Of a DNA stretch of 46,698 bases, positions 1 to 46,698 are shown one piece after another. Numbering within the stretch: the first letter of the stretch is position 1; the number at the start of each line of letters is the position of its first letter. This DNA is from a virus: positions 1-46,698 of the IMG/VR virus record IMGVR_UViG_3300032144_000019. One strand, 5' to 3'. Below the pieces are notes generated by a model. The model ran no database searches and had not been told where the DNA came from. It saw nothing but the letters and a program-made list of their open reading frames with translations. Both the position numbers and the translations under genes were made by a program.

Positions 1-158
1 GGCCTGTGCCCTGCAGGTAATACAGTCCGGTATTATTAGGGTGGTAGCTCCTGTAGCCACTAAAGAACTAGAGGGGCGTTGGGGAGAGTCTATTAAAACT
101 ACAAGAGCCTTATTTGAAGAGGCCGGTGTTGAACTAATTGAAAGTGTTGGTGGGATGT
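1..158. repeat. Left copy of 158-bp terminal direct repeat
   Basis: Bases 1-158 are repeated at 46541-46698 in the same orientation. The only difference I see is T at 127 versus A at 46667, a synonymous change in a glycine codon of dCMP deaminase. A repeat that cuts a gene in the middle is best explained by an assembly overlap of a circular or terminally redundant genome. Confidence 0.9.
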
Positions 159-2757: not shown

Positions 2758-3178
2758 CAATCCCCGTCTCCATGATGCGTGCTAATTTCTTGGCTCTATT
2801 GCCTACCTGCTTAGCCCACTTCGTAGAGCGCATATTAGTAGCTGCTCCCTTCCAATCTTTCTTCTGGAGCTGTGACATGAAGATAGGCCAATCCTTAAAT
2901 CCATCACCATCGAAGGGCTCAGGACCCAAGTTAAAGCACATGTCCTCAAGGACTCCCTGCCTGACAGGATCAAGGCCTAAGTATATGGGGACAGTCTGTA
3001 GGTACTCCCTGACAAGCTTTATCCTATTCTTAAGGATAAACTCGATCTCGTTATCATAGAGACCTACATCTGTGAGGTTAAACCCAACACCAATAGTAAG
3101 CTTACCTACGGTGTCTGTGTAGGGTTTGTTTTTCCATCCCTCGGATCGAACGAGGCGTTCATACAGATCATTAGTCAC
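2747..3178 (-). CDS. GH24 (T4-type) lysozyme endolysin
   Basis: The 143-residue muramidase contains the T4-lysozyme catalytic layout Glu13, Asp22, Thr28 within SEGWKNKPYTDTVGKLTIG. The C-terminus has the usual FNLG and W..A...MR segments. The start is GTG at 3178, behind GAGG with six bases spacing, overlapping the stop of the upstream gene by 8 bases. No signal peptide or SAR segment is visible, so it should need a holin to reach the peptidoglycan. Confidence 0.9.
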   Translation of the reverse strand: MTNDLYERLVRSEGWKNKPYTDTVGKLTIGVGFNLTDVGLYDNEIEFILKNRIKLVREYLQTVPIYLGLDPVRQGVLEDMCFNLGPEPFDGDGFKDWPIFMSQLQKKDWKGAATNMRSTKWAKQVGNRAKKLARIMETGIDEV

Positions 3179-5723: not shown

Positions 5724-5725
5724 AG

Positions 5726-6982
5726 TTACTTCTTTAGGACTCTCCAAACACCATCTTCACCCTTAACTAGTTCCGGAACTCCACCAGTATCCGTCAGGGT
5801 AGACTCAACATCCTTAAAGGTATCCGCTGGGAATACCTTATCGTACTCACCGACGAATCGCTTATAGTTTGGCTCAATTCCGATCCGTACAGCATCGCTG
5901 TCGGGGTAATCATAGAGCCTATCAATACGCTTGCGTAGGTTAGCTACAGCACGCAACATAACGGCGCGAGCCTTCTCTGGGCTGGAGGTATTACCACCCA
6001 GCTCATCCATAGCATACTTAAAGTCAGCATCTGAGATACGACCATCCTGAGAGTGAGAGGCAGCAAGGGTGTAAGCCATACCAATGATGGTAGCCTTAGC
6101 TAGCCCCGTCTTCTTAGATAAGTCCTCGAAGCGGGTATCTGTTTCATTGAAATAGTTGGCGTCGGGCTTGAATGCACGCAGGGCGTACTTGGCGGTGTCA
6201 AACGCCTCTGAGAGACCCTTGACCACAGAACCAGCAGCACCACCTACACCACCCTTGGCAACATCTCCTAGATACTGCTTAGAGCTATTAATGAAGTCAG
6301 CGGCGGAACGAATCTGCTTGTTGGCGTCCAGAACCTGGGCACCAGTCTGCTGCTCAGTTAGTAGTCCACCTACATTGACGTTTGTCTCATTCTTACCAAT
6401 CTCGTAAGAAGGACCCACAGCCTCTTGACCGATAACACGACCATACTTGTCCTTAACGTCCCGCATCTGCTGACGCCCCGTAGGCGTTCCGGATACACCT
6501 ACAGTAAAGGGGTTACCTGGGTTACCTGCCTGAGCCTCATTACGCATAGCCTCCTCGGACTTGCGCTTCTCTTCTGCTTCCTGCTGAGAGGCCTCCATGG
6601 CCGCTACATAAGCCATATGTGCTCGCTGGGTATCCCCCATACGGAGGAACTGCTGAGAAGCGTTGTATAGCTGAGACGAGTACGAACCCGCCCCAGACAC
6701 AGAGCCCGCCATGATCTGCTCCTGCTGAGAAGTATCTTGGGGGGCAGGGAGGTCGGGAATCTTAAGCTGTCCAGGAGTAGCGCCCATCTGCTGTCGTTGG
6801 GCCTGCTCTACAGGACCACCAAACAGACCATATCTAGCTGAGCTGCCTTGAGCAATTTGAGCATTAGTCTGCTGCATCTTAAGCTGCTCAAGCTGCTGAG
6901 CATACTGCATAGCGGACTTCTCCGTTGGGGAGAAGATTCCCATCTGCTGCATTAGACCTGAAAACTTACTTGGTTCTGCCAT
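5726..6982 (-). CDS. Putative internal virion protein (418 aa)
   Basis: The protein has a Gln-rich N-terminal half (AMQYAQQLEQLKMQQTNAQ and similar), suggesting coiled-coil structure. It is followed by a Gly-rich linker and a helical C-terminal domain with conserved-looking SHSQDGRISDADFKYAMDEL. Its place between the other two large proteins of the ejection block, tail genes upstream and lysozyme downstream, supports an internal virion role. No enzyme motif is visible. The 11-base gap to the upstream gene shows co-transcription. Confidence 0.6.
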   Translation of the reverse strand: MAEPSKFSGLMQQMGIFSPTEKSAMQYAQQLEQLKMQQTNAQIAQGSSARYGLFGGPVEQAQRQQMGATPGQLKIPDLPAPQDTSQQEQIMAGSVSGAGSYSSQLYNASQQFLRMGDTQRAHMAYVAAMEASQQEAEEKRKSEEAMRNEAQAGNPGNPFTVGVSGTPTGRQQMRDVKDKYGRVIGQEAVGPSYEIGKNETNVNVGGLLTEQQTGAQVLDANKQIRSAADFINSSKQYLGDVAKGGVGGAAGSVVKGLSEAFDTAKYALRAFKPDANYFNETDTRFEDLSKKTGLAKATIIGMAYTLAASHSQDGRISDADFKYAMDELGGNTSSPEKARAVMLRAVANLRKRIDRLYDYPDSDAVRIGIEPNYKRFVGEYDKVFPADTFKDVESTLTDTGGVPELVKGEDGVWRVLKK

Positions 6983-12275: not shown

Positions 12276-12333
12276 CCGGGAGAGTTATACTCCCTCCCGG
12301 AAGAGTTTGTTACTCAACCGTTATTAGGTTGAG
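12276..12333 (-). terminator. Two tandem hairpins behind the capsid gene (attenuator or mRNA 3' stabiliser)
   Basis: On the minus strand the capsid gene ends inside the hairpin CTCAACC/GGTTGAG (12313-12333). This is followed by a second hairpin, CCGGGAG/CTCCCGG (12276-12300), and a moderately T-rich ACTTATTCTT. The second fits a partial intrinsic terminator. They could raise capsid mRNA abundance relative to downstream tail genes. Confidence 0.6.
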
Positions 12334-13268
12334 GGAACCACGAACGCTACACCCGCATTGTCACGGAGTTCAGCACCACCGAAGATGGTGTCCGCAACCA
12401 TGAGGTCAGCCAGCCACTCCAGCTTATACTGGGTCTGTAGGCGGGGCTTCATCTGGGTAGCCAGCGCAAGGGCTGACTCGTGGATGAAGAGACCTACGAT
12501 CTGGTCGGTAGCAGTACCCGTGTCAGCAATGGTTGGGCAGTTGGTAGACACGTATACGGGTACGCCGTACAGGTCACCAATCAGGCCATTGCGGATTGGG
12601 TTGCCAGAACCAGTCTCACCAGTAAACGCCTGCTCAGTAAACCGGCTCAGGCCAAGCAGCTTGCGCTTCTCGACAGGCGGGATTACGAAAGCACGCCCAC
12701 GACCGGGGACATCAGCGTTATCCAGAAGCTCGATGAGCCGGCGGATAAACTCGTCAGTCAGGGCCGCAGCGTTACCAGCGTTAGCGTTGGCGGTTGGGTC
12801 CCAGTCAGCCAGCGCACCGCTGTTGTTGACCTTGGCCTTGGAATACGCAGTACCACCCTGTAGGGTCGCAGCTAGCGCGTGCACATAGGAGTCGATCTTC
12901 TTGGCGAGAGCATAGCCAGCATCGTCGGTGTAGAACTTACGGAGGGAGGGGAGAGCCTGAACCTTCACGATATCCTCAATGAGGCGTGAATACTCCCACC
13001 ACTGATCGACAGTTACGTTGACCGTGGTTGAGCTGTTGGGGATCAGGGTAACGACGTTCTCAGCGACCTTCGCGCTAGCAGCGCCACGAGTCGGTGAGGG
13101 GATGTGCATTACGTCACCCTTCTTGCCTACGAAGTCTAGGTTAGTTACCAAGTTAGCCGCAACAAGGTTAGTCTTGAACGCAGCTAGAATTTCATCTGAC
13201 CACATTTCCGGGACGAAATCACCGACTTCGGCTAGGATTACGTGGTTTGAACCAAAGGCTGTTGCCAT
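12324..13268 (-). CDS. Major capsid protein
   Basis: The 314-residue protein has an HK97-fold-type coat sequence. It shows an N-terminal MWSDEILAAFKTNLVAANLV, a middle VTVDQWWEYSRLIEDIVKVQ, RAFVIPPVEKRKLLGL, and a C-terminal LEWLADLMVADTIFGGAELR that are typical of podovirus coat proteins. It is preceded by the scaffold gene and followed by the tail adaptor, the usual order. Its codon use is rich in C/G-ending codons compared with neighbours, consistent with high expression. Confidence 0.9.
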   Translation of the reverse strand: MATAFGSNHVILAEVGDFVPEMWSDEILAAFKTNLVAANLVTNLDFVGKKGDVMHIPSPTRGAASAKVAENVVTLIPNSSTTVNVTVDQWWEYSRLIEDIVKVQALPSLRKFYTDDAGYALAKKIDSYVHALAATLQGGTAYSKAKVNNSGALADWDPTANANAGNAAALTDEFIRRLIELLDNADVPGRGRAFVIPPVEKRKLLGLSRFTEQAFTGETGSGNPIRNGLIGDLYGVPVYVSTNCPTIADTGTATDQIVGLFIHESALALATQMKPRLQTQYKLEWLADLMVADTIFGGAELRDNAGVAFVVPST

Positions 13269-27868: not shown

Positions 27869-28360
27869 ATGATTAAGAATTACATGTTCCGTGCTGGTGT
27901 GGGTATACTGTTGGGGATTCTGATAGTATTCGCCTTCACCCGATCTGTTAGGGCAGAGGAGCCCGCAGCGGTTGTCGTGGAGGCAGCTAAGGCGGTTGAC
28001 CTCAAGACGGAGGCCAACAATCTCCTGATTTCCATGATCAGTGGGGTTAAGGAAGCCGGGGTGTTCCTTAAGGATGAGATACCTGTAGCCATCAAGGAAC
28101 TACTGACGTATTACACAGCCTTATACGTCTTCAATTTAGTGACGACCTGTGTCGTGGTGTGGTTCGGCGTGGAGCTACTTAGGCGGGCCAGGGGCACGTG
28201 GGGGGAGCCGTGTCCCACGAACCTATCTGCCATTGGTGTAAGTCTTGTTGGTATAGTTAAGATTATCTATCAGATGTGTAGTGGTATTCCTGATCTACTC
28301 AAGATCATCTTAGCTCCCCGTATCTGGCTCATCGAGTATGCAGCCAATCTAGTTCGATGA
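27869..28360 (+). CDS. Membrane protein with signal peptide and two further helices
   Basis: Residues 9-24 are hydrophobic, followed by TRSVRA-EE, a plausible signal peptidase site after Ala29. Two more membrane helices are at about 81-104 (YYTALYVFNLVTTCVVVWFG) and 119-136. The mature N-terminal part (30-80) would be periplasmic. Early position suggests a superinfection-exclusion or envelope-remodelling role rather than lysis, though a holin is possible. The gene ends overlapping the next frame. Confidence 0.7.
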   Translation: MIKNYMFRAGVGILLGILIVFAFTRSVRAEEPAAVVVEAAKAVDLKTEANNLLISMISGVKEAGVFLKDEIPVAIKELLTYYTALYVFNLVTTCVVVWFGVELLRRARGTWGEPCPTNLSAIGVSLVGIVKIIYQMCSGIPDLLKIILAPRIWLIEYAANLVR

Positions 28361-28398
28361 TTCTTTCATTCATCCGTGAAGGTCTGGAGTTAGCAAAT

Positions 28399-28851
28399 AT
28401 GTGCAGTAAGTGTAAGTCGGCTCATCCGAACTCGATTTGTTGTGGTGTTGAGACCCCGGCAGTGGGACACCCCCATGCCAGCCTCATGGCCGAGTATGCC
28501 AAGGATGCGTTGACTTCCAAGGAGCCGTGGAAGGACTGGCAGTGGCGAATGGTACGGGAATCGGGAAACGATTCCGGTGCTGGTTGGTGTGCCCTACAGA
28601 CCTCGCCAACCTGGGGCACCGGTAATGAGTACCGCAGGAAGCCCAAGAAGAGAACGGCCAGTTGCCGGACTCTTCTGGTTCGGTATCCTTCGGAAGTTCC
28701 TAACAAGCCCGCACACCGGACTACGTACACGACAACTGACTTCGGGGGAGATAAGTCCCTCTGGGAGAGAAAGGTGGGGGACCCCATCTATGTTGGATCA
28801 AGCGGGATCGTGGTCCAGATTCATGACTACACGATGGAATACGACGAGTAA
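28399..28851 (+). CDS. Cysteine-rich hypothetical protein upstream of the amidoligase cluster
   Basis: ATG 28399 follows GGAG with nine bases spacing; an ATG at 28357 overlaps the previous stop but lacks a site. The product begins MCSKCKSAHPNSICCGVETP, a possible metal-binding motif, and then is basic and aromatic, with a beta C-terminus (GDPIYVGSSGIVVQIHDYTM). It precedes two strong RNA hairpins. No family recognised. Confidence 0.6.
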   Translation: MCSKCKSAHPNSICCGVETPAVGHPHASLMAEYAKDALTSKEPWKDWQWRMVRESGNDSGAGWCALQTSPTWGTGNEYRRKPKKRTASCRTLLVRYPSEVPNKPAHRTTYTTTDFGGDKSLWERKVGDPIYVGSSGIVVQIHDYTMEYDE

Positions 28852-28853
28852 GA

Positions 28854-28907
28854 GGTAGTCTGAAAGACTACCCACGCCTCCTAGGCGGGAAGCCCCGTTC
28901 TAGGAGG
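28854..28907 (+). promoter_or_regulatory. Two tandem hairpins, the second hiding a perfect Shine-Dalgarno
   Basis: GGTAGTC-TGAAA-GACTACC (28854-28872) is followed by CCTCCTAG (28877-28884) pairing with CTAGGAGG (28900-28907), with CGGG/CCCG inside. The right arm contains AGGAGG (28902-28907), so folding would block ribosome binding for the next reading frame. No T-tract follows, so it is not an ordinary terminator. Confidence 0.65.
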
Positions 28908-28915
28908 TCTCCGAA

Positions 28916-29231
28916 ATTAAATCTTGACCAAACTCCAAGCCGACTAAAACTAATAGCCTTAGGGCATTGCTACAAACGTCGGCACGCTAGATTCGATCTC
29001 ACTCAACCAGCTAAAGTTTTAACCTCTAATAAAACGCCGATCTGTGTTAGGCGTTACTACGAATTTCATGGTGTACGTAGTAATGAGCCATACCTAGACA
29101 CAGTATCTTTCATACGTCCTAGTCCGAAAACTGTGTTTGAAGTAGATGGGTTGGCGTCCTTTACGGATGCTAAGGAAGCCGTTTTGTCGTCAAAAACCGT
29201 TGGAAAACAAGTACTTACACACACGAGGTAA
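28916..29231 (+). CDS. About 100-aa reading frame without a normal start codon
   Basis: The frame ending at TAA 29229-29231 is open back to 28827 and reads as a plausible protein (LNLDQTPSRLKLIALGHCYK... FTDAKEAVL), and its stop overlaps the ribosome-binding site of the next gene. No ATG, GTG or TTG is present before residue 70. The perfect Shine-Dalgarno (28902-28907) points at ATT 28916, but that frame meets TGA after ATT AAA TCT; removing one A from AAA, or a +1 shift at TCT TGAC, would join it to the open frame. Other options are CTG 28857. No family recognised. Confidence 0.5.
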
Positions 29232-29233
29232 CA

Positions 29234-30226
29234 TTGAGCAGCTCAGCCATGGTAGTTACTTTCGGGGCTGATCCCGAACTGTTTCTAGCTCGTTCAAATA
29301 AAGTAGTTAAGGAAGTACCCTCGAAGATAGCTGGAGAGACCAGAAAGGCCAACAAGACCGAGATTACCCCTGTCCTTGTCACAGGTCTGATCGGGGGAAC
29401 CAAGCATGATCCTCTCCCTCTCACTAATACACTCAAGGGGTGGGAGCATGTACGAGACATCCCCGAAGGGGCGATGATCCAGGAGGATGGTGCTGCTGCG
29501 GAGTTTAATATTAAGCCGCAGAATTCTACTTCACTAATGGTCGAGCAGTGCCGCGGGGTAGTGGATTCCATCAATCAGTGGGCCAGCCTCAAGGGTCTCC
29601 GCATCTGGAAGGATTCCTCCGCCGCCTTTACGGAGAATTACCGCAGGAGCCACCCGAAGGCATTCGAGGTTGGGTGTGATCCTGACATCGACGCATACAC
29701 GGGCCAAGTGCGGAAGCCGCCTGATGCTGTGATTGGGTCTCTGGTACGCTACGCGGGTGGCCACATCCATGTGGGGTATGACAAGAACCTCATCCCACCA
29801 CACATTGTGGTGCAGTTCATGGACCTCGTTCTGGGTCTTCCGTCTGTGTTCCTGGACTCACAGGGCCCTCGTCGCCAGTTCTATGGCAAGGCTGGTTCTT
29901 ATCGAGTTAAGGATTACGGTGTGGAATACCGTACCCTCTCGAACTTCTGGGTGCCAGGGGTCCAGTATCACTCAACAGTAGGCACGCATTTCTGTTTCGC
30001 CCTATCTGAGCTGATGACCGCCTTCCGGTCTGATATGGCTTCTCTCGAACGACTGCATGCCATTATCCCCTGGAAGGAGGTTCAGGAGGCCATCAACACT
30101 GAGAATCAGCGCCTGGCTCTTAGCATCATTGATCTGGGGTGCGCCCATGCCAGAGCAGTGATGTCTGGTGCCAAAGAGTTCGTTAAAAATTCCGCCATCT
30201 TCCGTAAGGAATACCAAGTTCGCTAA
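29234..30226 (+). CDS. COOH-NH2 ligase type 2 (glutamine-synthetase-fold amidoligase)
   Basis: The 330-residue protein looks like the phiEco32-type COOH-NH2 ligase family. It has GADPE (Asp13, Glu15), EDGAAAEFN (residues 84-92), a further GCDPDIDAYTG and a GGHIHVGY motif (about 175-182), which are the acidic and histidine metal/ATP residues of the fold. TTG 29234 is chosen because GAGG lies five bases before it; ATG 29249 lacks such a site. The enzyme is predicted to join an amine to a carboxylate at ATP cost. It is the first recognised enzyme of the cluster. Confidence 0.8.
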   Translation: MSSSAMVVTFGADPELFLARSNKVVKEVPSKIAGETRKANKTEITPVLVTGLIGGTKHDPLPLTNTLKGWEHVRDIPEGAMIQEDGAAAEFNIKPQNSTSLMVEQCRGVVDSINQWASLKGLRIWKDSSAAFTENYRRSHPKAFEVGCDPDIDAYTGQVRKPPDAVIGSLVRYAGGHIHVGYDKNLIPPHIVVQFMDLVLGLPSVFLDSQGPRRQFYGKAGSYRVKDYGVEYRTLSNFWVPGVQYHSTVGTHFCFALSELMTAFRSDMASLERLHAIIPWKEVQEAINTENQRLALSIIDLGCAHARAVMSGAKEFVKNSAIFRKEYQVR

Positions 30227-30234
30227 GAGGTAGT

Positions 30235-30861
30235 ATGTACAGACCTCCTGACGTTGAAAATCTAGCTGACTTCATTCAGTACTACCGCTCCTCCTTCATT
30301 GGCTATGATGAGCATAGGATTGGGGAATACCTGCCTATCTTCATCCATGGACCAGATGGTGGTGGGGAGAGAGTTCGGATAACTGACTCGAATGGGGATT
30401 TGAGAACTGTCCCCTTCGAGCGCATCATGGAGCAGGCTCAGTTTGGGTGTCCTCAGTACGGTACTGCGGAACTGGATGCCTCGGTATTCTTTGTGTCCCG
30501 CAGAAGTGCTAGGTCGCAGTATAGGGGCCACAGAAGCAGCCTGGTCAGGTACACCATGCTCGGAGCAGGAGACATACAGCCCCCTGGAATCATGGATTCT
30601 TGGCCATATGCTAAAGCCCTATTCAAGCCCACGTATAGACCATTTGATCGGGCGTATATGGACCTAATGCGGGGGGAGAGGTTTGGGTGTGCGTTGACCC
30701 CATACTTTTCACTGGCGCATGTGCTTGGGTACAAGGTTCCGTGCCTTCACTATAAAACGAAGCTAGTAGGCTTCGCCACATCTCCTACCAGCGTGGCTCT
30801 GGATGGAGATAGCGATTACCTACTGGTAACTGAGAGCTTTCCTAACATTCAGGTGAACTAG
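30235..30861 (+). CDS. Cluster-associated hypothetical protein (208 aa)
   Basis: ATG 30235 follows AGAGG. The product begins MYRPPDVENLADFIQYYRSS and has GEYLPIFIHGPDGGGERVRI, a central FFVSRRSARSQYRGHRSSLV and a C-terminal VPCLHYKTKLVGF. It lies between the two amidoligases and two bases before the second, so it is probably an accessory or a carrier of the modification. No family recognised. Confidence 0.6.
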   Translation: MYRPPDVENLADFIQYYRSSFIGYDEHRIGEYLPIFIHGPDGGGERVRITDSNGDLRTVPFERIMEQAQFGCPQYGTAELDASVFFVSRRSARSQYRGHRSSLVRYTMLGAGDIQPPGIMDSWPYAKALFKPTYRPFDRAYMDLMRGERFGCALTPYFSLAHVLGYKVPCLHYKTKLVGFATSPTSVALDGDSDYLLVTESFPNIQVN

Positions 30862-30863
30862 TT

Positions 30864-32009
30864 ATGCCTAGTGTTGAGATTGGTCGGTTGCTAGGGAACA
30901 ACCCACCTAAACTTGCGAGGAGAGGGGATAATTCTCTAGTACTACCAGAGACGTATCTGGGGCTGGAGTTTGAGGTAGAGAACTGTGCTTTTAGTGAAAA
31001 CACTATTCTGCCTCGGCCGTTGTCCGCTTATTGGACAATTAAAAAGGACGGCTCCCTGAGAAATGGTGGTATGGAGTTCGTATTTACTGAGCCCCTGTTC
31101 GGACAGGATGTGGTTCAGGCGGTAAACGCCTTCATAGACTATAGGGAGAAGTCTCAGATAACTACTTCCATACGCACAGGGATGCACGTGCATCTTGATA
31201 TGCGGGAAGTCAGTCTGGAAAACCTCATCTCCTTTACAGCTCTGTACACCCTTCTAGAGCCCATGATTTTCAAGTGGGTCGGCAACAACAGGGAGGAATC
31301 CATCTACTGTGTTCCTTTCTATTACAGTGATGAGGCCATCAAACAGGCTACAAGCATCCTTACTGCCCTGATCCATGACGATATTCTGTATCAGGCTGCT
31401 CCGGAGAGTAATCGCTTTACCTCTAAGAAGGTCTCGGATAACTTCGAGAGGTATGCAGGACTCAATATGCAGGCTCTAGGACGCTTCGGGTCCGTGGAGT
31501 TTAGGCATATGCCTATGACCTTCTCCAAGCAACTGATCATGGGGTGGATAAACATCATTCTTGCCATTAAGAAGGAGTCTTTGGCAATAAGCCCGGCTGA
31601 ATTGAGAAGTCGAATCAGCGCGGGACGGCTTAACGTTAATTCTGTAGTTAATAGCCTCGGACCTGCTGTTCGAGGTGTTCTTGGCCACATCCCTGTATCG
31701 AGGGAGCAGTCTCTTAGGGTCTGCTATTCGGCTCAAGAGATACTACAGGTGCTGGATGTTCGGAAGTGGAAATCTCCTAATCCTCGATTTTATGGTGAGA
31801 ATCCTCTTCTGGCAAAGAACAAGGCCAACCCACCACCAGTAGTGATGGTGCCGCAAGAGCTGGGCCCATTAGCTGCGGCAGCTCTTGCTGCCCGCCGACG
31901 CGGTTGGGACGAAGAGATAAGAATGGCGTATGGACTAGGAGCTGATCCGCCCGCGCCGGCGCCTGTCTGGATTGAAGATGGTATTGACGACGACCTTAAC
32001 AACCCATAA
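30864..32009 (+). CDS. Amidoligase family enzyme (PF12224-like)
   Basis: The 381-residue protein has the Amidoligase_2 pattern. GLEFEVE with Glu35 and Glu37 opens the domain, KKDGSLRNGGMEFV (residues 60-73) gives Asp62 and Glu71, TGMHVHLDMR (105-114) gives the histidines, and FGSVEFRHMPMT is the later conserved Glu/Arg/His. The last 60 residues are Pro/Ala-rich and acidic. It is a second ligase of the same fold as the gene at 29234, with presumably a different substrate. The start has AGGTGA upstream. Confidence 0.85.
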   Translation: MPSVEIGRLLGNNPPKLARRGDNSLVLPETYLGLEFEVENCAFSENTILPRPLSAYWTIKKDGSLRNGGMEFVFTEPLFGQDVVQAVNAFIDYREKSQITTSIRTGMHVHLDMREVSLENLISFTALYTLLEPMIFKWVGNNREESIYCVPFYYSDEAIKQATSILTALIHDDILYQAAPESNRFTSKKVSDNFERYAGLNMQALGRFGSVEFRHMPMTFSKQLIMGWINIILAIKKESLAISPAELRSRISAGRLNVNSVVNSLGPAVRGVLGHIPVSREQSLRVCYSAQEILQVLDVRKWKSPNPRFYGENPLLAKNKANPPPVVMVPQELGPLAAAALAARRRGWDEEIRMAYGLGADPPAPAPVWIEDGIDDDLNNP

Positions 32010-32024
32010 AGAAGGAGAAGGCCT

Positions 32025-33710
32025 ATTTGCGGACTAGCTGGTGTTGCCTCTACAGAAGGCATTAAGAACGTAAAGAACCGAAGGGATGCCCTTCATGATG
32101 CTATCTTCTGTAGCACTCTCCGTGGAGACCATTCCACGGGTATCGCTGCTGTAACTCTCGGTAAGGAGACACAGGAGCCGGAAGTATGGAAGCGGGCCAT
32201 GGCTGGTCCTGACTTCCTCGGTATGGGCCGTACACAACGTATCCTCATGGATGCGGACAAGTATTCCATGCTGATCGCTCATAACAGGGCTGCCACCATG
32301 GGTCAGCGGCACAATTGGAATGCCCATCCGTTCCAGTTTGATCACATCACCCTCACCCACAATGGGCACGTCAGTAACGCCATGACCCTTCTGCCTGCCG
32401 GCAAGAAGATCAATCATGATGTGGACTCCGCCCACGTCGCTGCGGCGATGGCGGCCCTAGGAGAGAAGGAGACCCTTGAGGCGTGCACGGGAGGCTTTGC
32501 CTTCGTGTGGCATAACTCCAAGGATGGTACCCTGAACATTGCCCGTAACTCAGGTCGTCCACTGAAGCTGGCCTATGTGGCGGGGGAGAATACTCTGTGG
32601 TGGATGAGTGAACGCCTGATGCTTCGCTCCATCTTGGAGCGGCACCAGATTACCATTGACAAGGAAATGCTTAACCTCCCGGAGAAGGTGTGGGTTAAGT
32701 TTAACGTTAAGAACCTACGGGAGTACACCACCGTCCCTTTTGTCCCAAGGTCCACGGGTACGACCCGCTCGGGGGCCACTACCGTAGCTGGGGGTCAGGC
32801 GCAGACGGTAGGCCAACCTTCCCATACGAAAGAACAAACCAAGATTTCTACAACGATTGGGACTAAGGCCGCGATGGCTCAGGGTGCCAAAATCTCTGAA
32901 ATCCAACAGGACCTGATTAAGGACATCCTTAAAGGGATTAAGGTACCGAAAGCGGAGCAGGACAAAAGGGTATTTGAACTATCCAAAAACTCCTGTCGCC
33001 CCAAGGGCCACAAGAAGGTCCGCCGAGCCACTGAGCGGCTCGCTACCAGCGGATTTTCCTACGATCAGTGTGTTCTGGTTGATACTCGCATGTGGTCTAA
33101 GTACCGCAATCAGGACAACATGGGGCAGATTGTAGGAACAATCTTTAATTCCTCCGCTCCTGTCCACATGTCGTCTATGACGTTGGAGCAGTACAAGGAC
33201 ATGTCTGATCTTGGGGTTCTTCTTGGTAGGGTTGTGGGACTCAAGCCCGACAAAAAGACTGGTAAGCAGGCCCTCATTGTCGAACCACATCCGTTGTATG
33301 TGGAATTCGACGCGGAGTGGTCCAAAAGATACGATGAGTTTAAGACGCGAGAGCCTCCGAAAGCTGGCTACCCACGTCCAATCCTCGCTCTCCCCACAGG
33401 AACAGTTTCTGGAAACGATGGTAAAAGTGGGGACGTGGATAGCTCAGGCGACGGTAGTCCTAGCCTCACTCATTGTGGTCCTGGTAATCGGGCTATATCT
33501 ATTCTCCGCTTCAATGAGCTTACGAAGAACGGATGTGGATGCTGCTCAGGGGACATCGGTAATTCCGTAGAGGAAAGTAAGAGGATCATGTGGATTAATG
33601 ACTCCCCTATCTGCCCGATGTGCCATACCGATCCTGCAACCATGGCCGGGTACGGCTTTACTGGGAGTATCCCTGCAAGTGTTCTACCTACAAAGGGAAA
33701 TCTCCATTAA
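32025..33710 (+). CDS. Class II (Ntn) glutamine amidotransferase, ATT start
   Basis: From ATT 32025 the product is 561 residues: Met-Cys2-Gly-Leu-Ala-Gly, the nucleophile of class II amidotransferases. RGDHSTG (33-39), IAHNRAATMG (84-93), NAHPF (99-103) and THNGHVSN with Asn113-Gly114 match the GlmS/PurF-type active site. AAGAAGGAGAAGG stands before ATT with good spacing. The first ATG (32199) would remove Cys2 and half the site. The C-terminal part has CRPKGHKK and a cysteine cluster GCGCC...CPMC, likely zinc-binding. It releases ammonia from glutamine or hydrolyses gamma-glutamyl bonds for the neighbouring ligases. Confidence 0.85.
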   Translation: MCGLAGVASTEGIKNVKNRRDALHDAIFCSTLRGDHSTGIAAVTLGKETQEPEVWKRAMAGPDFLGMGRTQRILMDADKYSMLIAHNRAATMGQRHNWNAHPFQFDHITLTHNGHVSNAMTLLPAGKKINHDVDSAHVAAAMAALGEKETLEACTGGFAFVWHNSKDGTLNIARNSGRPLKLAYVAGENTLWWMSERLMLRSILERHQITIDKEMLNLPEKVWVKFNVKNLREYTTVPFVPRSTGTTRSGATTVAGGQAQTVGQPSHTKEQTKISTTIGTKAAMAQGAKISEIQQDLIKDILKGIKVPKAEQDKRVFELSKNSCRPKGHKKVRRATERLATSGFSYDQCVLVDTRMWSKYRNQDNMGQIVGTIFNSSAPVHMSSMTLEQYKDMSDLGVLLGRVVGLKPDKKTGKQALIVEPHPLYVEFDAEWSKRYDEFKTREPPKAGYPRPILALPTGTVSGNDGKSGDVDSSGDGSPSLTHCGPGNRAISILRFNELTKNGCGCCSGDIGNSVEESKRIMWINDSPICPMCHTDPATMAGYGFTGSIPASVLPTKGNLH

Positions 33711-33792
33711 CGATAACCTATGTCTGTTTAAAGGTGATGTATCTCACTGTGATTTTCTGGATTGCGTAGCAGAAGGATGCTGTAAAAAGGGT

Positions 33793-34551
33793 ATGAAGAA
33801 CGAACTTAAAGAATTAACGTATCCTGTTCGGTTGTTTGTGTATGGGACCCTTAAGAAAGAGTTCTATAACAACAACACATTAAAGGGGTCCAAATACGTA
33901 AGGCAGTCTCGGGTCAATGGTATTCTCCTGCATCTAGGGAACTATCCTGGACTCCTGCTTGAGTCTACAGCCACCCCTGTCGAAGGAGAGCTGTGGGACG
34001 TACCTGATGCGGAGATTCTGGCTAGGGTAGATCAGCTCGAAGGTCACCCGCATTGCTTTGAACGAAAGAAGGTACGTGTGGCAGGTGGGGAGGAGGTGTA
34101 TACCTACGAGTACGGCTGGTACTATCAGGTAAATGAATCCGTAAAAAAGACTGAGGGGTACAGATGTGTGCCCGGAGGGACGTGGTACGGACAGCACTCC
34201 TTTGCCATCCCATTCCTTGGGTTCTTTAAGACGGATGCTAAGTCTGTTCCAAAGACCTCAGGCGCAGCGAGAGCCCACATCCACATCGAGGGCCAGTTTA
34301 AGGGGATGATTGACTGCTTCACGGGACAGATTGTCCGGGATAACTGGCAGGCCACTGGTAAGCCACACCTTATCTATGACAAGGATTTGGACGCATGGAA
34401 GTTGTCTGGAAGCACTGCTCTGGCAGATACCCGGCCTTCCTTGCCTCCCCTCTACGTCGCTCTACCTAAGTCGGTGGTTCCAGCACCAACCCCATATGTC
34501 GATAGCTCTGATCCCGGTGAGAAGGATTTTGAAATGAGGAATGTCGCCTAA
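33793..34551 (+). CDS. Gamma-glutamylcyclotransferase (GGCT/AIG2)-like protein
   Basis: The 252-residue product has the GGCT signature VRLFVYGTLKKEF followed by GSKYVRQSRVNGILLHLGNY, VEGELWDVP and VDQLEGHPHCFERKKV. The C-terminal half (from about residue 115) is extra and includes a beta-rich HIHIEGQFKGMID segment. ATG 33793 is conservative; the frame is open upstream through six cysteines to ATT 33706, which overlaps the previous stop as ATTAA and has AAAGGGA before it. GGCT enzymes split gamma-glutamyl amines, so it may trim or edit the products of the ligases. Confidence 0.75.
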   Translation: MKNELKELTYPVRLFVYGTLKKEFYNNNTLKGSKYVRQSRVNGILLHLGNYPGLLLESTATPVEGELWDVPDAEILARVDQLEGHPHCFERKKVRVAGGEEVYTYEYGWYYQVNESVKKTEGYRCVPGGTWYGQHSFAIPFLGFFKTDAKSVPKTSGAARAHIHIEGQFKGMIDCFTGQIVRDNWQATGKPHLIYDKDLDAWKLSGSTALADTRPSLPPLYVALPKSVVPAPTPYVDSSDPGEKDFEMRNVA

Positions 34552-34553
34552 AC

Positions 34554-35495
34554 ATGGCCGCTAAACTTCGTCGTCGTTTAATCGGTAAAAAAGCAGGCCC
34601 GCGCCTGCGAAAGGATACGTTCGACTACTATGATCTCATCATCTACGCAGCGCGAGGGTCCAACAGTGCCCGAGCCCTCGCCAGAGCCCTCAAGTGCCGG
34701 CGGTGGTTCGAGAACTCTCCAGATCGTTATAAGCGGAGACGTGCTTTCTTTAGAGGGAGACCTTACCCTGTTATCGTCAATTGGGGGAGTACTGTACGAC
34801 CAGCGTGGGGCACAGTTGCGGAGGTGGTTGCAAAAAGCGATAAGGCAGGGTGCTACCTCAATAATACTGACTCCGTGGCACGCGCTATCAACAAGCTGGA
34901 GACGTTCAAATGTCTAAACGCTGCTGGTGTGCCTGTGTTGCGGAACACAACAGACAAAGATACCGCCAAGAAGTGGTTGGCAAAGAAACATCAAGTATTC
35001 GCCCGTCTCAGTGTGACAGCTTCAGGAGGTACAGGAATTCGGGTTATTTCGGAAGTGGAAAGGTTGCCGGATGCACCTTTGTACACCCGGAACTACCCAA
35101 AGACCCATGAGTTCCGAGTCCATGTGTTCGATGGTAAGGTCATTGACTTCGTAGAAAAGAAGGCGAAACTAGATGCCAACACTAATGCTCCTGCTGTTCG
35201 TGACCGCTTGGTTAGGAATCACGATAACGGTTGGATTTTTGCACATGACAATCTCAGCTGTTCCAAAGATGGAGTGGCCGAAATTAACCGTATTGCGGTC
35301 AGTGCTGTACGTAGTCTTGGGCTTCTGTTTGGCGGTGTGGATATTCTGGCTATCTTGGACCAAGGTAATGGTCCACGGAAGCTTAAATCAGCCGTCGTCT
35401 GTGAGGTCAATACAGCCCCCGGTTTGGAGTGTACAGAAACCATCAACGCCTACGTCAACGCCATCCGTACCAAGCATCTGGCTCTAAGGAAGTAA
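34554..35495 (+). CDS. ATP-grasp ligase (RimK-like)
   Basis: The 313-residue protein ends with the ATP-grasp metal motif: FGGVDILAILDQ, then AVVCEVNTAPGLECTETIN. The glycine loop is ARLSVTASGGTGIRV, with Arg at the place where Lys is common. HEFRVHVFDGKVIDFVEKK forms the central strand. Such enzymes add amino acids to carboxyl ends by acyl phosphate. It directly follows the GGCT gene (two bases) and completes the predicted peptide-modifying set. Confidence 0.82.
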   Translation: MAAKLRRRLIGKKAGPRLRKDTFDYYDLIIYAARGSNSARALARALKCRRWFENSPDRYKRRRAFFRGRPYPVIVNWGSTVRPAWGTVAEVVAKSDKAGCYLNNTDSVARAINKLETFKCLNAAGVPVLRNTTDKDTAKKWLAKKHQVFARLSVTASGGTGIRVISEVERLPDAPLYTRNYPKTHEFRVHVFDGKVIDFVEKKAKLDANTNAPAVRDRLVRNHDNGWIFAHDNLSCSKDGVAEINRIAVSAVRSLGLLFGGVDILAILDQGNGPRKLKSAVVCEVNTAPGLECTETINAYVNAIRTKHLALRK

Positions 35496-35500
35496 GCTAT

Positions 35501-36238
35501 ATGGCTTTTGTCAAAATCTCAGATAAGTCTCAGATCGAGTGCAATGTTTTTATTAAAGGGACACTTTCCAGCCTAGGCTGCCACGCAGCCGTACTTAATA
35601 ACATAAACCTCCCTGACTTCTCCTTCCCGAAGAAAGGAGGATATGGACATAGTAGTTGGGCAACAATTCGGGGCACGAGCTGGTTGCGCTTTCCTACTGG
35701 AATGACGTATGAGCGGTATCTCGAAGAGATTCAGAGCGTAAAGGAATTCAAGGACCTTCCAGAAGAATCCCAAAGGCTTGTCGTAGAGGAGTACATCAGT
35801 ACAACCCTTAATCGTGCTGATAATTGGCACCAGACCATTATCTTTGCTCCTGTAGTCAACTATGACTTGCCTAGTCGAGGGGATAATAGGAATTCCAACA
35901 CCGACACAGCAGAAGTGATCAAGCTGCTGATGAAGTATGGTAAAGGTGGGTCGTGGTATGGGCTCCCCTTAATGGTTAATCCGGTAGCCGCCCATCGCCC
36001 TGAATACGGTATGGGCATCTCTCTATTCCAGATCGTTGTCTGGAATCGTACTACAGCAGACTTTCCAATGCTCCGAGGAAGCCGCTTTGAAATGCATCCC
36101 GAGAAGTTCGGTCAATACGGCAACTTGCTTAATCTAGATGCATTTTTAGACAGATATAAGGCTCCACCTGGGGCAGAGGAAAAGGACCTTCATGCTCAGT
36201 TCAAGCTCTTTGCTGAAGAAGAGGTCAAACCTTACTAA
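35501..36238 (+). CDS. Last protein of the amidoligase cluster (245 aa), unrecognised
   Basis: ATG 35501 follows GGAAG, five bases after the previous stop. The protein is mixed alpha/beta (MAFVKISDKSQIECNVFIKG, YLEEIQSVKEFKDLPEESQR, WYGLPLMVNPVAAHRPEYGM). Lengths and composition look enzymatic or structural, but no motif is known to me. It is followed by the promoter at 36252. It might be the target or a partner of the modification. Confidence 0.6.
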   Translation: MAFVKISDKSQIECNVFIKGTLSSLGCHAAVLNNINLPDFSFPKKGGYGHSSWATIRGTSWLRFPTGMTYERYLEEIQSVKEFKDLPEESQRLVVEEYISTTLNRADNWHQTIIFAPVVNYDLPSRGDNRNSNTDTAEVIKLLMKYGKGGSWYGLPLMVNPVAAHRPEYGMGISLFQIVVWNRTTADFPMLRGSRFEMHPEKFGQYGNLLNLDAFLDRYKAPPGAEEKDLHAQFKLFAEEEVKPY

Positions 36239-36251
36239 TAGAAAATAAATT

Positions 36252-36278
36252 GAACTTCTTCAGATTTCAGTTGTCTAA
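36252..36278 (+). promoter_or_regulatory. Middle promoter, GAACTT-N16-TCTAA type
   Basis: GAACTT (36252-36257), 16 bases, TCTAA (36274-36278), followed by TAC as in the late promoter. It lies in a 75-base gap in front of the primase-helicase genes. A short hairpin TAGAT-TTA-ATCTA comes just after. Together with 22396-22422 and 43372-43398 it defines the motif. Confidence 0.7.
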
Positions 36279-36313
36279 TACTTAGATTTAATCTATTTGT
36301 TAAAGAGTAATAC

Positions 36314-36580
36314 ATGAATAGAAATAATATTGATAGAAATGATTATGAATATGATCCAGAAGAAGAATATTTGTTAAATGGGACTATGCCCGACGTAGCC
36401 GGGCTTGCTACTCCCCGCTTTGCGGAGAGCCGTAAGGGCTTTGTTGAGGAATTTGAGAGTCTGCTCGACCAACGCCTCGCAGAGGAAGAATCTAATGTTA
36501 AGTATCTCTCCGTCATTGCTGAGATTACGGAAGATGATCTTGTTGAGCATGAAGGAGAGTCGGATGGTGAAGAAGTCTGA
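36314..36580 (+). CDS. Acidic hypothetical protein (88 aa)
   Basis: The product is Asn/Asp/Glu-rich (MNRNNIDRNDYEYDPEEEYL, LDQRLAEEESNVKYLSVIAE) and ends with EHEGESDGEEV. It overlaps the next gene by 17 bases. A DNA-mimic or a protein-binding role could be imagined from the charge; there is no family match. Confidence 0.6.
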   Translation: MNRNNIDRNDYEYDPEEEYLLNGTMPDVAGLATPRFAESRKGFVEEFESLLDQRLAEEESNVKYLSVIAEITEDDLVEHEGESDGEEV

Positions 36581-36974
36581 TCCTGCTGTTAACATCCGTA
36601 ATGGGTTAACTGTTAAGGAGCTGGTAGTCCTACTCAGCAAGTACCCTGACGATACTGAACTCGTAATTGAGACTCAGGAGGGTATTGATGGACTGTCTGG
36701 TGGGTTCTACTTTGCTAAGGCAGGTACTATCTCCCTCGTAGGCTACGAGACGGATATCGTTGTCGAGGAAGATGAGGACTTCGACTCCATCGAGGCATTC
36801 GGCCATGCCGAGCTTGTGGACGAGGCTCCTCCTGAGCCAGACGAGCATGAGGACGGGGATCAGGCAGGACTCCCCTTCGAGCCGGACCCCGCATGTGCCG
36901 TACCGGACCCCAAGAAGCCCGTAGACCTAGGAGAAGTTGATGTCCCCCTCCGTCCATCAATCTCCGGTGGATAG
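36564..36974 (+). CDS. Acidic protein upstream of primase (136 aa)
   Basis: ATG 36564 follows AAGGAGAG. The product starts MVKKSDPAVNIRNGLTVKEL, has a folded part to about residue 75 (VVLLSKYPDDTELVIETQEG) and then a long acidic, proline-rich tail (DEAPPEPDEHEDGDQ). The overlap with the primase start is 35 bases. A longer frame back to 36405 is a shadow of the previous gene. Confidence 0.6.
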   Translation: MVKKSDPAVNIRNGLTVKELVVLLSKYPDDTELVIETQEGIDGLSGGFYFAKAGTISLVGYETDIVVEEDEDFDSIEAFGHAELVDEAPPEPDEHEDGDQAGLPFEPDPACAVPDPKKPVDLGEVDVPLRPSISGG

Positions 36975-37794
36975 GCAGGTAGGAGCATACGAGGCCCTAA
37001 CTATAGGGATGTATGCTTCTGATTTAAGTGTAGGTGATAGGAAAAGCGGGCTTCTATGCCCGTTTTGTCATGGTGGGGGTACGAAAGAGAAATCCTTCTC
37101 CGTTATCTGCTACTTTGATAATGTCTCATGGAAGTGCTGGAGAGGGTCTTGTAACAAGAGTGGGCGTCTTAACGCTAAGACGGGGGAGATGCGGGAAGCC
37201 TCTGCCCCGCTGGCAAATCCCTACGATGAGAGTAGACCCCATCTGTACAATATGACTGCTATCTCCGGGGAGTGGAATGAGACATTAATCAAGAAATACT
37301 CCATCACTCCGGAGCTGGCTATGTCTAAGGGATGGTTGGGAAATAGTCTAGGCCATCTAGTCATCCCCATCAGGAAGCCAGGTATGCCTGTGATTATTGG
37401 GCATGAGTTTAAGAAGTTAAATGGGTTCCCAAAGACCCTGATGAACTTCACGACTAATGGGGAGTTCCCTAGGAACGCCTTTGAGACCCCCAAGGATCGG
37501 AAGACAGTTCTGATCGTGGAGGACTCAATATCCGCCCTAAAGGCCTCTCAGGTGTGCAGGACGTACGCCTTGCTGGGGATTAACTTTATCCAGAAGCACG
37601 TGGAGGAGCTTATTGAGCAGTGGCCGGCAGACAACTATCTGTTAGCCTTGGATAAGGATGCTACTCTCCGGGGAGAGGCAATCATCAAGAGGTATAAATT
37701 CTTGATGCCGAACCTCAAGCTGTGTCCGATTCAAAAGGACCTCAAATATCATTATGTTGCAGACATTGAACAACTTGTCAGGAGTTATTCGTAG
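36940..37794 (+). CDS. DNA primase (zinc finger and TOPRIM)
   Basis: From ATG 36940 (TTG just before) the protein is 284 residues. The zinc finger is LLCPFCHGGGTKEK with CWRGSC, followed by a linker. The TOPRIM domain has TVLIVEDSISALKAS (Glu of motif I) and LLALDKDATLR (DxD). It has the T7 gp4 N-terminal layout without the helicase, which is encoded separately at 38339. It makes primers for lagging-strand synthesis. Confidence 0.85.
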   Translation: MSPSVHQSPVDRQVGAYEALTIGMYASDLSVGDRKSGLLCPFCHGGGTKEKSFSVICYFDNVSWKCWRGSCNKSGRLNAKTGEMREASAPLANPYDESRPHLYNMTAISGEWNETLIKKYSITPELAMSKGWLGNSLGHLVIPIRKPGMPVIIGHEFKKLNGFPKTLMNFTTNGEFPRNAFETPKDRKTVLIVEDSISALKASQVCRTYALLGINFIQKHVEELIEQWPADNYLLALDKDATLRGEAIIKRYKFLMPNLKLCPIQKDLKYHYVADIEQLVRSYS

Positions 37795-41158: not shown

Positions 41159-41373
41159 ACATACTTAGAGAGGCTTTCCTAGCTAATAATAGTCCATGTC
41201 CTAAATGTGAAGGGCTGGGGTTCGTACCTGATCTCGTAGAGGGATTTCAGTGGTGCTGCGGCACCTGCGGAGGAAAGGGTTACGTGAACAAAAATAATAA
41301 GAATGAGGATAATGGGAGAACTACCACACTTTCTGACGAAAAAGAATCCATCCGAGATTTACCTATCCGATAA
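41155..41373 (+). CDS. DnaJ-type zinc-finger protein (72 aa)
   Basis: TTG 41155 gives MNILREAFLANNSPCPKCEG, then LGFVPDLVEGFQWCCGTCGG and KGYVNKN. CPKCEGLG and CGTCGGKG are DnaJ-like CxxCxGxG units, one zinc site. The C-terminal part overlaps the DNA polymerase start by 62 bases. Role unknown. Confidence 0.65.
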   Translation: MNILREAFLANNSPCPKCEGLGFVPDLVEGFQWCCGTCGGKGYVNKNNKNEDNGRTTTLSDEKESIRDLPIR

Positions 41374-43135
41374 CTACCTAGTAATCGACTTTGAGACCAC
41401 TAATCGTCAGTTTGGTTTTGCAGGGAATCCCGAAAACAAGCTACTCCTTACCTCGTACTGCGGCCCAGATGGACAAGTGCGAACACAGGTGGGCGATGAG
41501 TTTAACCAAGGGGATTTGTTCAGAAGGCTCGCCGTATGTGACTTCGTGGTGGTACAAAACGCCAAGTTTGAGCTTCAATGGTTGGCTCGTATGGGTTATG
41601 CCATTGAAACACTCGTGGTATTTGACACCATGTTGGCCGAGTATGTATGGCTGGGGAACCGGAAGGGACCCAAAGACCTGGACAGCCTTGCCAAGAAGTA
41701 CGGAGCGCCTTTAAAGAACTCAGTTGTTAAATCATTAATCCAGGGTGGAGTATGTCCAAGCGAAATACCAATCAAGTGGCTAAGTCAGTATTGCGAGGGG
41801 GATGTCCTATCGACGCACAAGATATTCCTGAAGCAGAGAAGGCTGTTGAACGAGACTGGATTGCTTCCGGTATTCTTCACCCGCTGTGTCACTACCCCTG
41901 TTCTTGCCGAAATCGAGATGCAGGGAATGCATCTGGACAAGGAGAAAGTGGAAGATGAGTATCAGAAGGTATTACGGTCCTACACGGAAGCAGAAGAACG
42001 CCTCCGCATTATCACTGGTGGAATCAACCTTAACTCTCCTAAGCAAGTCGGAGAGTTCTTATATGAAAGACTGGCCTTTACTGAGCTACGCACAAGGAAA
42101 GGGGAGCCTGATCGTACTGAGGCGGGAGGACGGAGAACAGATGAAGATGCAATTAAAGCTCTTAAGGCGACTACTCCAGAGCAGCAAGCCTTCAAGGAAT
42201 GCTTCCTCACAGCAAAGCCTCTTGTAAAACGTCTCGATACCCTCACTAAAATGAGGGAGTGCTGTAAGGAGAATGGAGGAATCCTCTATGCAAACCTCAA
42301 CCAAGCAGTCACGGCGACACACCGACTCTCGTCGTCAGGCAAAGAGTACAAGATTCAGTACCAGAATATTGATCGTACTCTTAAGCAGATGTTTTCCAGC
42401 CGACATCCTGGCTGGTGCACTGGCGAGACAGACGGCTCGTCGCTTGAGTTCCGAGGGGCTATGCACCTTGGACGAGACCCTAATGGCAAGAAGCTTATTG
42501 AGGCGGGCGGAGACCCGCACATTCTTTCAGCTTGCGCGATTTTCGGGGTCACCCCGGAGGAAGTAACCAGTGATATCAGAACAAATGCAAAGCCTGAAAC
42601 TTTTAGACCTCTTTACGGAGCAAGCTCTGGATCAGCCGCTCAATTACGCTATCTGGCTGCCTTCAGGGAAGAGTACCGCCAATTATATCAAGTTCAGACA
42701 GGATGGACGCTACTCGTTAGTAGAGATAAAAGGCTTAAAACCGAATGGGGAATGGTGTTTTATTGGCCTGATGCCAAGGTCTCACGTTCAGGTTATATCA
42801 CTAGAACAACTGAAATCTTTAATTACCCGGTCCAATCATTTTCCACTGCTGAGATCATTCCCATATCTCTCGTATGTTTCTGGCACAGACTCAAACGAAG
42901 CAAACTCAAGATGTTCCTTACCAATACAGTCCACGACTCTATCGTGGCGGAGCTTCCATTGGATGAAGCCGGAGCCTTCCATGAGCTTTCTAAGCAGTCT
43001 TTTCTTGTGGATACTCCTGATTACCTGCTACGGAATTATGGGATCAATCTTTATGTCCCTCTTGGATGTGAGGTAAAGGTAGGATCACATTGGAGTAAGG
43101 GTAAAGGAGTAAAGTATGAGCAGAATAAAGCGTAA
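41312..43135 (+). CDS. Family A DNA polymerase with 3'-5' exonuclease domain
   Basis: ATG 41312 follows GAGG. The 607-residue protein has an exonuclease domain (VIDFETT, Asp26/Glu28; VVVQNAKFELQWL; QYCEGDV) and a PolI-type polymerase domain. Motif A is TDGSSLEFR with Asp374 and Glu379 (usual DYSQIELR), motif B runs from Arg423 to Lys427 and KPETFRPLYG, motif C is VHDS with His541-Asp542. There is no 5' nuclease domain; that activity is encoded separately at 44808. It replicates the phage genome. Confidence 0.9.
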   Translation: MGELPHFLTKKNPSEIYLSDNYLVIDFETTNRQFGFAGNPENKLLLTSYCGPDGQVRTQVGDEFNQGDLFRRLAVCDFVVVQNAKFELQWLARMGYAIETLVVFDTMLAEYVWLGNRKGPKDLDSLAKKYGAPLKNSVVKSLIQGGVCPSEIPIKWLSQYCEGDVLSTHKIFLKQRRLLNETGLLPVFFTRCVTTPVLAEIEMQGMHLDKEKVEDEYQKVLRSYTEAEERLRIITGGINLNSPKQVGEFLYERLAFTELRTRKGEPDRTEAGGRRTDEDAIKALKATTPEQQAFKECFLTAKPLVKRLDTLTKMRECCKENGGILYANLNQAVTATHRLSSSGKEYKIQYQNIDRTLKQMFSSRHPGWCTGETDGSSLEFRGAMHLGRDPNGKKLIEAGGDPHILSACAIFGVTPEEVTSDIRTNAKPETFRPLYGASSGSAAQLRYLAAFREEYRQLYQVQTGWTLLVSRDKRLKTEWGMVFYWPDAKVSRSGYITRTTEIFNYPVQSFSTAEIIPISLVCFWHRLKRSKLKMFLTNTVHDSIVAELPLDEAGAFHELSKQSFLVDTPDYLLRNYGINLYVPLGCEVKVGSHWSKGKGVKYEQNKA

Positions 43136-46465: not shown

Positions 46466-46698
46466 AATTAATGCTATCCTACAGGCCAAGCAAGCTTTAG
46501 ATGGTTGCACTCTTTACACCGTACCGTTCATGCCTTGTTCGGCCTGTGCCCTGCAGGTAATACAGTCCGGTATTATTAGGGTGGTAGCTCCTGTAGCCAC
46601 TAAAGAACTAGAGGGGCGTTGGGGAGAGTCTATTAAAACTACAAGAGCCTTATTTGAAGAGGCCGGAGTTGAACTAATTGAAAGTGTTGGTGGGATGT
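46227..46698 (+). CDS. dCMP deaminase, N-terminal and central part
   Basis: From TTG 46227 the protein is read to the window end and continues at base 159 of the left end through the terminal repeat. SSWSKDPSTKVGAVI, LGYNGFPSKLKD, HGEINAI and MPCSACA are the classical dCMP deaminase motifs with His, Glu and two Cys for zinc. The total length would be about 175 residues. It converts dCMP to dUMP. It overlaps the DUF3310 frame for 239 bases. Confidence 0.88.
   Translation, partial: MSENWLESEENEKKWDNRFLKLAREVSSWSKDPSTKVGAVITYRNKVVSLGYNGFPSKLKDSPERLEDRTQKLSHTIHGEINAILQAKQALDGCTLYTVPFMPCSACALQVIQSGIIRVVAPVATKELEGRWGESIKTTRALFEEAGVELIESVGGM
46541..46698. repeat. Right copy of 158-bp terminal direct repeat
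   Basis: Same sequence as 1-158 except A at 46667 in place of T at 127. See the left copy for the interpretation. Confidence 0.9.

What the first reader, a model, noticed from the sequence alone, without database searches (positions are those of the whole stretch)
28916..36238. Complete predicted amide-bond system: two amidoligases, class II amidotransferase, GGCT, ATP-grasp and three unknown proteins
Seen: in one tight run there are a COOH-NH2 ligase-like protein (29234), a PF12224-like amidoligase (30864), an Ntn amidotransferase (32025), a GGCT/AIG2-like protein (33793) and an ATP-grasp ligase (34554), with unknown proteins at 28916, 30235 and 35501. Known: the comparative-genomics work of the Aravind group grouped amidoligases, amidotransferases and ATP-grasp ligases of phages as predicted peptide or protein modification systems, and phiEco32-type phages name one family. 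Inference: the system ligates amino acids or amines to a phage protein, host peptidoglycan peptide or small metabolite; GGCT edits gamma-glutamyl bonds. It fills about one sixth of the genome, so the benefit must be large. The order with two different GS-fold ligases may be new.
Basis: partly seen in the sequence, partly recalled or inferred. Interest (0 to 1): 0.88.

Follow-up and report, generated by a model that had tools for sequence, protein, structure and literature searches.

The report
Known phage amide-bond (amidoligase) gene cassette
This virus of bacteria carries a known, widespread set of six genes predicted to build unusual amide bonds, probably on the host cell wall early in infection; its glutamine-splitting enzyme starts with a very rare start codon that recurs in its relatives and may be a new control device.

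Summary
The genes are real and nearly as described. Window 29234-35495 holds a PF14395 ligase, a ~200-aa unknown, a PF12224 amidoligase, a class II amidotransferase (GAT), a GGCT and a RimK-like ATP-grasp enzyme, with active-site residues kept. The claim that the order may be new is wrong: LUZ24, PaP3, UFV-P2, phiEco32, BUCT695 and Vp_R1 have ligase-unknown-amidoligase-GAT, then ATP-grasp (and usually GGCT), and the literature calls it a "peptidoglycan modification cassette". Of 88 related loci all carry the ligase, 83 the GAT, 83 the ATP-grasp and 74 the amidoligase. Chemistry and wall target remain predictions.

Three additions. (1) The unknown 30235 is a divergent member of a family nearly always between the two ligases, with no solved relative. 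(2) The gene at "28916" is real but starts upstream, apparently at CTG 28860; 35501 is an orphan. (3) The GAT starts at ATT 32025, directly before its catalytic Cys. ATT/ATC starts occur in 13 of 83 non-redundant cassette GATs, scattered over the tree and including phiEco32, but in 0 of 97 bacterial GlmS-type genes. Translation of this enzyme may be held low through IF3. I found no earlier remark on this.

The parts
28860..29231 (+). small conserved protein (CxRR[YF] motif), probable CTG start; linked to the cassette in the window's clade
   Evidence: open frame; homologs L084, L012, L014, L049, L015, L030, L052; upstream aagaggtagt identical to that of 30235
29234..30226 (+). COOH-NH2 ligase, PF14395, GS/GCS-like fold (TTG start; ATG 29249 also possible)
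   Evidence: D13 E15, Q83 D85 E90, GGHIHxG, GxEYRxLSNxW conserved in 8 aligned proteins
30235..30861 (+). inter-ligase protein family (LUZ24 gp17 / phi32_85), R-x-P-x-R-Q-W-K-R-G motif in the family; AF2 model with small Tudor/SH3-like barrels
   Evidence: hhalign E 8.7e-6, phmmer E 2e-19 to L014, alignment, model pLDDT 93.5
30864..32009 (+). amidoligase PF12224, GS-like
   Evidence: GxExExE, SLR, HxH, EFR invariant
32012..32017 (+). Shine-Dalgarno AAGGAG, 7 nt before the ATT start
   Evidence: sequence
32025..33710 (+). class II (Ntn) glutamine amidotransferase, ATT start codon at 32025, nucleophile Cys at codon 2; C-terminal OB-like domain and CxxC pairs
33793..34551 (+). GGCT (gamma-glutamyl cyclotransferase, PF06094) with a C-terminal extension of about 120 aa
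34554..35495 (+). RimK-like ATP-grasp ligase
   Evidence: phrog_2599 8e-58; profile matches RimK and alpha-L-glutamate ligases in the PDB; alignment
35501..36238 (+). orphan protein, 245 aa, co-directional with the cassette; membership uncertain
   Evidence: no relative found

Best explanation
It is a member of the phage amidoligase cassette of phiEco32/LUZ24/PaP3, called in the literature the peptidoglycan modification cassette. Shown here: gene content, order, catalytic motifs, and a sixth conserved component between the two ligases. Inferred: the two GS-fold ligases and the RimK-like ATP-grasp enzyme activate carboxylates with ATP and join them to amines; the GAT supplies ammonia from glutamine or removes a gamma-glutamyl group (its fold matches both GlmS and EgtC); GGCT clears gamma-glutamyl products. 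Leading guess for the target, not shown: host wall peptide or its precursors, altered at the start of infection to exclude other phages or protect the cell. My separate probabilities: cassette membership 0.97, amide-ligation chemistry 0.85, wall target 0.35.
For: Families and motifs. The order matches LUZ24, PaP3, phiEco32, BUCT695, Vp_R1; in LUZ24, PaP3 and phiEco32 the block lies just before the primase, as in the window (primase 36937). Co-occurrence in 88 loci: ligase 88, GAT 83, ATP-grasp 83, amidoligase 74, GGCT 58. A ~200-aa protein lies between ligase and amidoligase in nearly every locus where they are neighbours. Fold: GAT = GlmS/EgtC glutaminase; ATP-grasp nearest RimK, alpha-L-glutamate ligase and graspetide/D-Ala-D-Ala ligases. 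Papers: cassette named and wall target proposed (PMC5498523); transcribed immediately after infection in phage HP1 (PMC7082346); ATP-grasp, GAT and GGCT detected as proteins in an SU10 preparation (PMC4281155). Nine of 92 GATs carry a hydrophobic N-terminal segment before the Cys, which fits membrane association.
Against: No substrate or product has been measured in any source I could read. Early transcription and the place beside replication genes also fit a nucleic-acid or host-takeover role. The inter-ligase protein has Tudor/SH3-like barrels and a basic motif, and the GAT has an OB-like domain with CxxC pairs, which fit nucleic-acid or protein binding as well. The two founding papers could not be opened here.
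Confidence: 0.55

Rival explanations
1. The cassette makes a small molecule by gamma-glutamyl protection chemistry, as in butirosin (ATP-grasp plus GGCT-like BtrG) or ergothioneine (GCS-like EgtA plus Ntn EgtC).
For: GAT structure matches EgtC as well as GlmS; ligases and two gamma-glutamyl-processing enzymes mostly travel together.
Against: No carrier protein, tailoring enzyme or exporter seen in the cassette; a lytic infection leaves little time for a released metabolite. The butirosin and ergothioneine pathways are recalled from own knowledge.
Confidence: 0.22
2. The cassette modifies a protein (host RNA polymerase, ribosome or a phage protein), RimK-like.
For: ATP-grasp is closest to RimK among solved structures; earliest transcription in HP1 (PMC7082346).
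Against: RimK alone adds glutamates; this does not explain two GS-fold ligases plus GAT plus GGCT.
Confidence: 0.2
3. The cassette modifies tRNA or DNA bases with amino-acid or amide groups.
For: Next to the replication module; OB-like and CxxC region in the GAT, basic R-Q-W-K-R motif and Tudor-like barrels in the inter-ligase protein.
Against: No nucleobase-modifying enzyme in the cassette; no known nucleic-acid-binding family matched.
Confidence: 0.12
4. The genes are nitrogen-scavenging auxiliary metabolic genes, as proposed for Planctomycetes phage ZRK32.
For: Proposed with growth data in PMC10945688.
Against: Those data are correlative; three ligases are a costly way to scavenge nitrogen, and the set is kept across very different hosts.
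Confidence: 0.06

Closest known systems
Cassette of LUZ24/PaP3/UFV-P2 (Bruynoghevirus and allies)
   Same: ligase - ~190 aa unknown - PF12224 amidoligase - GAT - ATP-grasp and GGCT, just before the primase
   Different: Window has GGCT before ATP-grasp, a GGCT C-terminal extension, an extra upstream conserved gene, an orphan at 35501 and an ATT start on the GAT
phiEco32 cassette (Kuravirus, gp86-gp77)
   Same: Same core and order; GAT also starts with ATT (annotated start, record 56523)
   Different: In phiEco32 a conserved leader (MKGFTLQVD, then a stop) precedes the ATT; absent in the window
RIO-1/HP1 'peptidoglycan modification cassette'
   Same: Same enzyme families (PMC5498523)
   Different: Genes not compared here residue by residue
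infC (IF3) ATT start and sigR GTC start, IF3-repressed genes
   Same: Start codon outside ATG/GTG/TTG (PMC5472188)
   Different: IF3 sensitivity of the phage GAT is untested

Membership tests
phage amidoligase ('peptidoglycan modification') cassette | PF14395 ligase with GS-fold active-site residues | tested here: met
phage amidoligase ('peptidoglycan modification') cassette | PF12224 amidoligase | tested here: met
phage amidoligase ('peptidoglycan modification') cassette | class II GAT with N-terminal Cys and Gln-binding residues | tested here: met
   (C2, R88, N113, G114, D134 invariant)
phage amidoligase ('peptidoglycan modification') cassette | RimK-like ATP-grasp and GGCT | tested here: met
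phage amidoligase ('peptidoglycan modification') cassette | conserved ~200-aa protein between the two ligases | tested here: met
phage amidoligase ('peptidoglycan modification') cassette | one co-directional block before the primase | tested here: met
phage amidoligase ('peptidoglycan modification') cassette | actually modifies peptidoglycan | not testable with these tools
   needs muropeptide analysis
genes with IF3-discriminated start codons | start codon outside ATG/GTG/TTG with no alternative start | tested here: met
   ATT five codons after an in-frame stop, SD AAGGAG 7 nt upstream
genes with IF3-discriminated start codons | translation repressed by IF3 | not testable with these tools
   needs reporter assay

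The most novel reading that the evidence does not exclude
The GAT of this cassette has repeatedly and independently acquired AUU/AUC start codons, so that its synthesis is limited and IF3-sensitive (in the phiEco32 group also through a conserved leader peptide ending one codon before the AUU). This would be a recurrent translational control of one enzyme in a phage pathway, which start-site annotation often misses.
Probability: 0.4. Interest if true: 0.72.

Novelty: new member of a known kind. Interest (0 to 1): 0.5.

Why it matters
The cassette occurs in hundreds of phages (309 of the GenBank phage records searched have a relative of the PF14395 ligase) and takes up about a sixth of this genome, yet no product is known from any source I could read. 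Finding that the inter-ligase protein is a regular sixth component gives biochemists the probable full set to reconstitute. The AUU/AUC starts give a testable claim about dosage control and expose an annotation error: in several records the annotated GAT lacks its catalytic Cys.

Tried and rejected
New gene order: rejected. Homology of 35501 to the two proteins upstream of the ligase in LUZ24/PaP3 type phages: not supported. Defence system: no PADLOC match. Structured RNA or tRNA: no Rfam match in 28000-37000, no tRNA in the window. Known solved relative of 30235: none with E <= 1e-3, none convincing by sequence. Sequencing error as the cause of ATT: rejected, since phiEco32, MN03, SU10, KBNP1711, SU7 and BUCT695 all have it. 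Upstream alternative GAT start: rejected in the window and six other non-redundant ATT cases, where an in-frame stop lies one to five codons before the ATT. AUU/AUC starts as a general habit of cassette genes: no ligase of 104 and no amidoligase of 79 lacks an ATG/GTG/TTG codon before its domain, a test of limited power because those N-termini are not fixed.

Full report
What is there. The window is a 46,698-base viral record with a near-identical direct repeat of about 158 bases at its ends, so probably a complete genome. Structural genes run leftward, replication genes rightward, as in LUZ24-type phages. Five are known enzymes; the other three resolve as follows.

The gene at 28916. The frame 28851-29231 is open but has no ATG/GTG/TTG near its beginning. 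Seven related contigs have homologs upstream of the ligase, and the alignment continues upstream of 28916 (LKDYPRLLGGKPRSRRS against FVDVPRIFGGRGAKRKS). The 10 bases aagaggtagt before CTG 28860 are identical to those before ATG 30235, so CTG 28860 is the likely start (inference).

The gene at 30235. It had no tblastn match in phages, but a profile of LUZ24 gp17, PaP3 orf47, phiEco32 gp85 and others matches it (hhalign probability 83, E 8.7e-6), and in metagenomic phages it matches neighbours in the same place directly (E 2e-19). In nearly all loci where the ligase and amidoligase are neighbours a protein of about 200 aa sits between them; 44 members align around R-x-P-x-R-Q-W-K-R-G. The AF2 model is confident (pLDDT 93.5) but has no PDB match with E <= 1e-3; partial matches are Tudor/SH3-like barrels.

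The gene at 35501. No relative in phages, viral contigs or eight related cassette contigs. Its membership of the cassette is open.

Known system. The order is that of LUZ24, PaP3, phiEco32, BUCT695 and Vp_R1 (BUCT695 shows no annotated GGCT in the stretch read) and of the UFV-P2 gene table (PMC3890496). Relatives of the ligase are in 309 and of the GAT in 312 of 50,697 phage records, and at least 535 stretches in IMG/VR encode ligase relatives. In 88 loci the five enzymes are almost always together in one direction, in several orders; the window's own order (GGCT before ATP-grasp) recurs in eight others. The literature names a peptidoglycan modification cassette, proposed to change the wall against superinfection (PMC5498523; PMC11945000). 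In HP1 it is transcribed immediately (PMC7082346); in SU10 several products were detected by mass spectrometry (PMC4281155). Iyer 2009 and Hardies 2013 could not be opened; what they say is taken from papers citing them.

Activity. Residues expected at the metal, ATP and substrate sites of GS-fold ligases are invariant in both ligases (assignment of roles is from own knowledge of the fold). The GAT keeps the nucleophile Cys, R88, NAHP, HNG and D134, and its N-terminal domain matches GlmS (E 1.4e-13) and EgtC (E 4e-9). The C-terminal part, residues 349-421, has the strand-helix order of an OB fold, followed by two CxxC pairs. The ATP-grasp enzyme is nearest to RimK and alpha-L-glutamate ligases.

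Start codons of the GAT. The catalytic Cys must be the first residue of the mature enzyme, so the codon before it reports the start. In the window it is ATT (32025), with AAGGAG 7 nt upstream and only five codons after an in-frame stop. In 92 non-redundant cassette GATs the codon is ATG 67, ATT 11, ATC 2, TTG 2, GTG 1, and 9 have instead a hydrophobic N-terminal segment, so their Cys needs processing. The tree needs at least 12 changes to place the 13 ATT/ATC rows, 3 of them forced by well-supported branches. An independent sample drawn with a pattern that accepts any NTN codon gave, among cassette GATs, ATG 19, ATT 4, ATC 3, GTG 1, TTG 1. The same kind of pattern in bacterial genomes gave 97 GlmS-type genes passing a motif filter: ATG 93, GTG 3, TTG 1, ATT/ATC 0; Fisher p 1.5e-5 against the pattern sample (that sample included near-duplicates). 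The control is a different, cellular gene, so the contrast may be partly phage versus cell. Within the cassette no ligase (0 of 104) or amidoligase (0 of 79) forces such a start, a test of limited power.

In phiEco32 the ATT is the annotated start (record 56523). In BUCT695, MN03, SU7 and KBNP1711 the annotated start lies downstream and drops the Cys. In this group 38 bases (AAAGGGTTnACCCTTCAGGnGGATTAGAAAATTTGTGG) are almost identical; they include most of a possible leader peptide (MKGFTLQVD or MKGLTLQAD) ending in TAG one codon before the ATT. Coupling from this leader is a guess. [quoted passage not shown] I infer that the GAT is kept low relative to the ligases, possibly because free glutaminase activity is costly.

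Verdict. The finding is correct in content but not new as a system. The target is the open question; I favour wall peptides or precursors at about 0.35.

Noticed in passing
window 32025; phiEco32 record 56523; L003 10038; L021, L051, L055, L063, L138, L139, L142, L144, L108, L136: ATT or ATC start codon directly before the catalytic Cys of the cassette GAT, scattered over the tree and absent in 97 bacterial GlmS-type controls.
   Followed up: yes
L003 10001-10050, phiEco32, MN03, SU10, KBNP1711, SU7: Nearly invariant leader (MKGFTLQVD, stop, AAA, ATT) with a short inverted repeat before the GAT; annotated GAT starts in BUCT695, MN03, SU7 and KBNP1711 miss the Cys.
   Followed up: partly
L002, L023, L027, L028, L029, L036, L037, L060, L078: GATs with a hydrophobic N-terminal segment of about 20 residues, then (L)(G/N)CG: membrane-linked propeptide that must be cut off to free the Cys?
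   Followed up: partly
window 28860-29231: Conserved small gene with probable CTG start upstream of the ligase.
   Followed up: partly
window 1-158 and 46541-46698: Direct terminal repeat with one mismatch seen, suggesting a complete genome.
   Followed up: no
window 12324-13268 and 41303-43135: Head protein nearest to cyanophage and actinophage proteins, DNA polymerase nearest to Vibrio phages of the VpV262 kind: no close isolate.
   Followed up: no
window 3171-6982: 858-aa and 418-aa proteins with no PHROG match.
   Followed up: no
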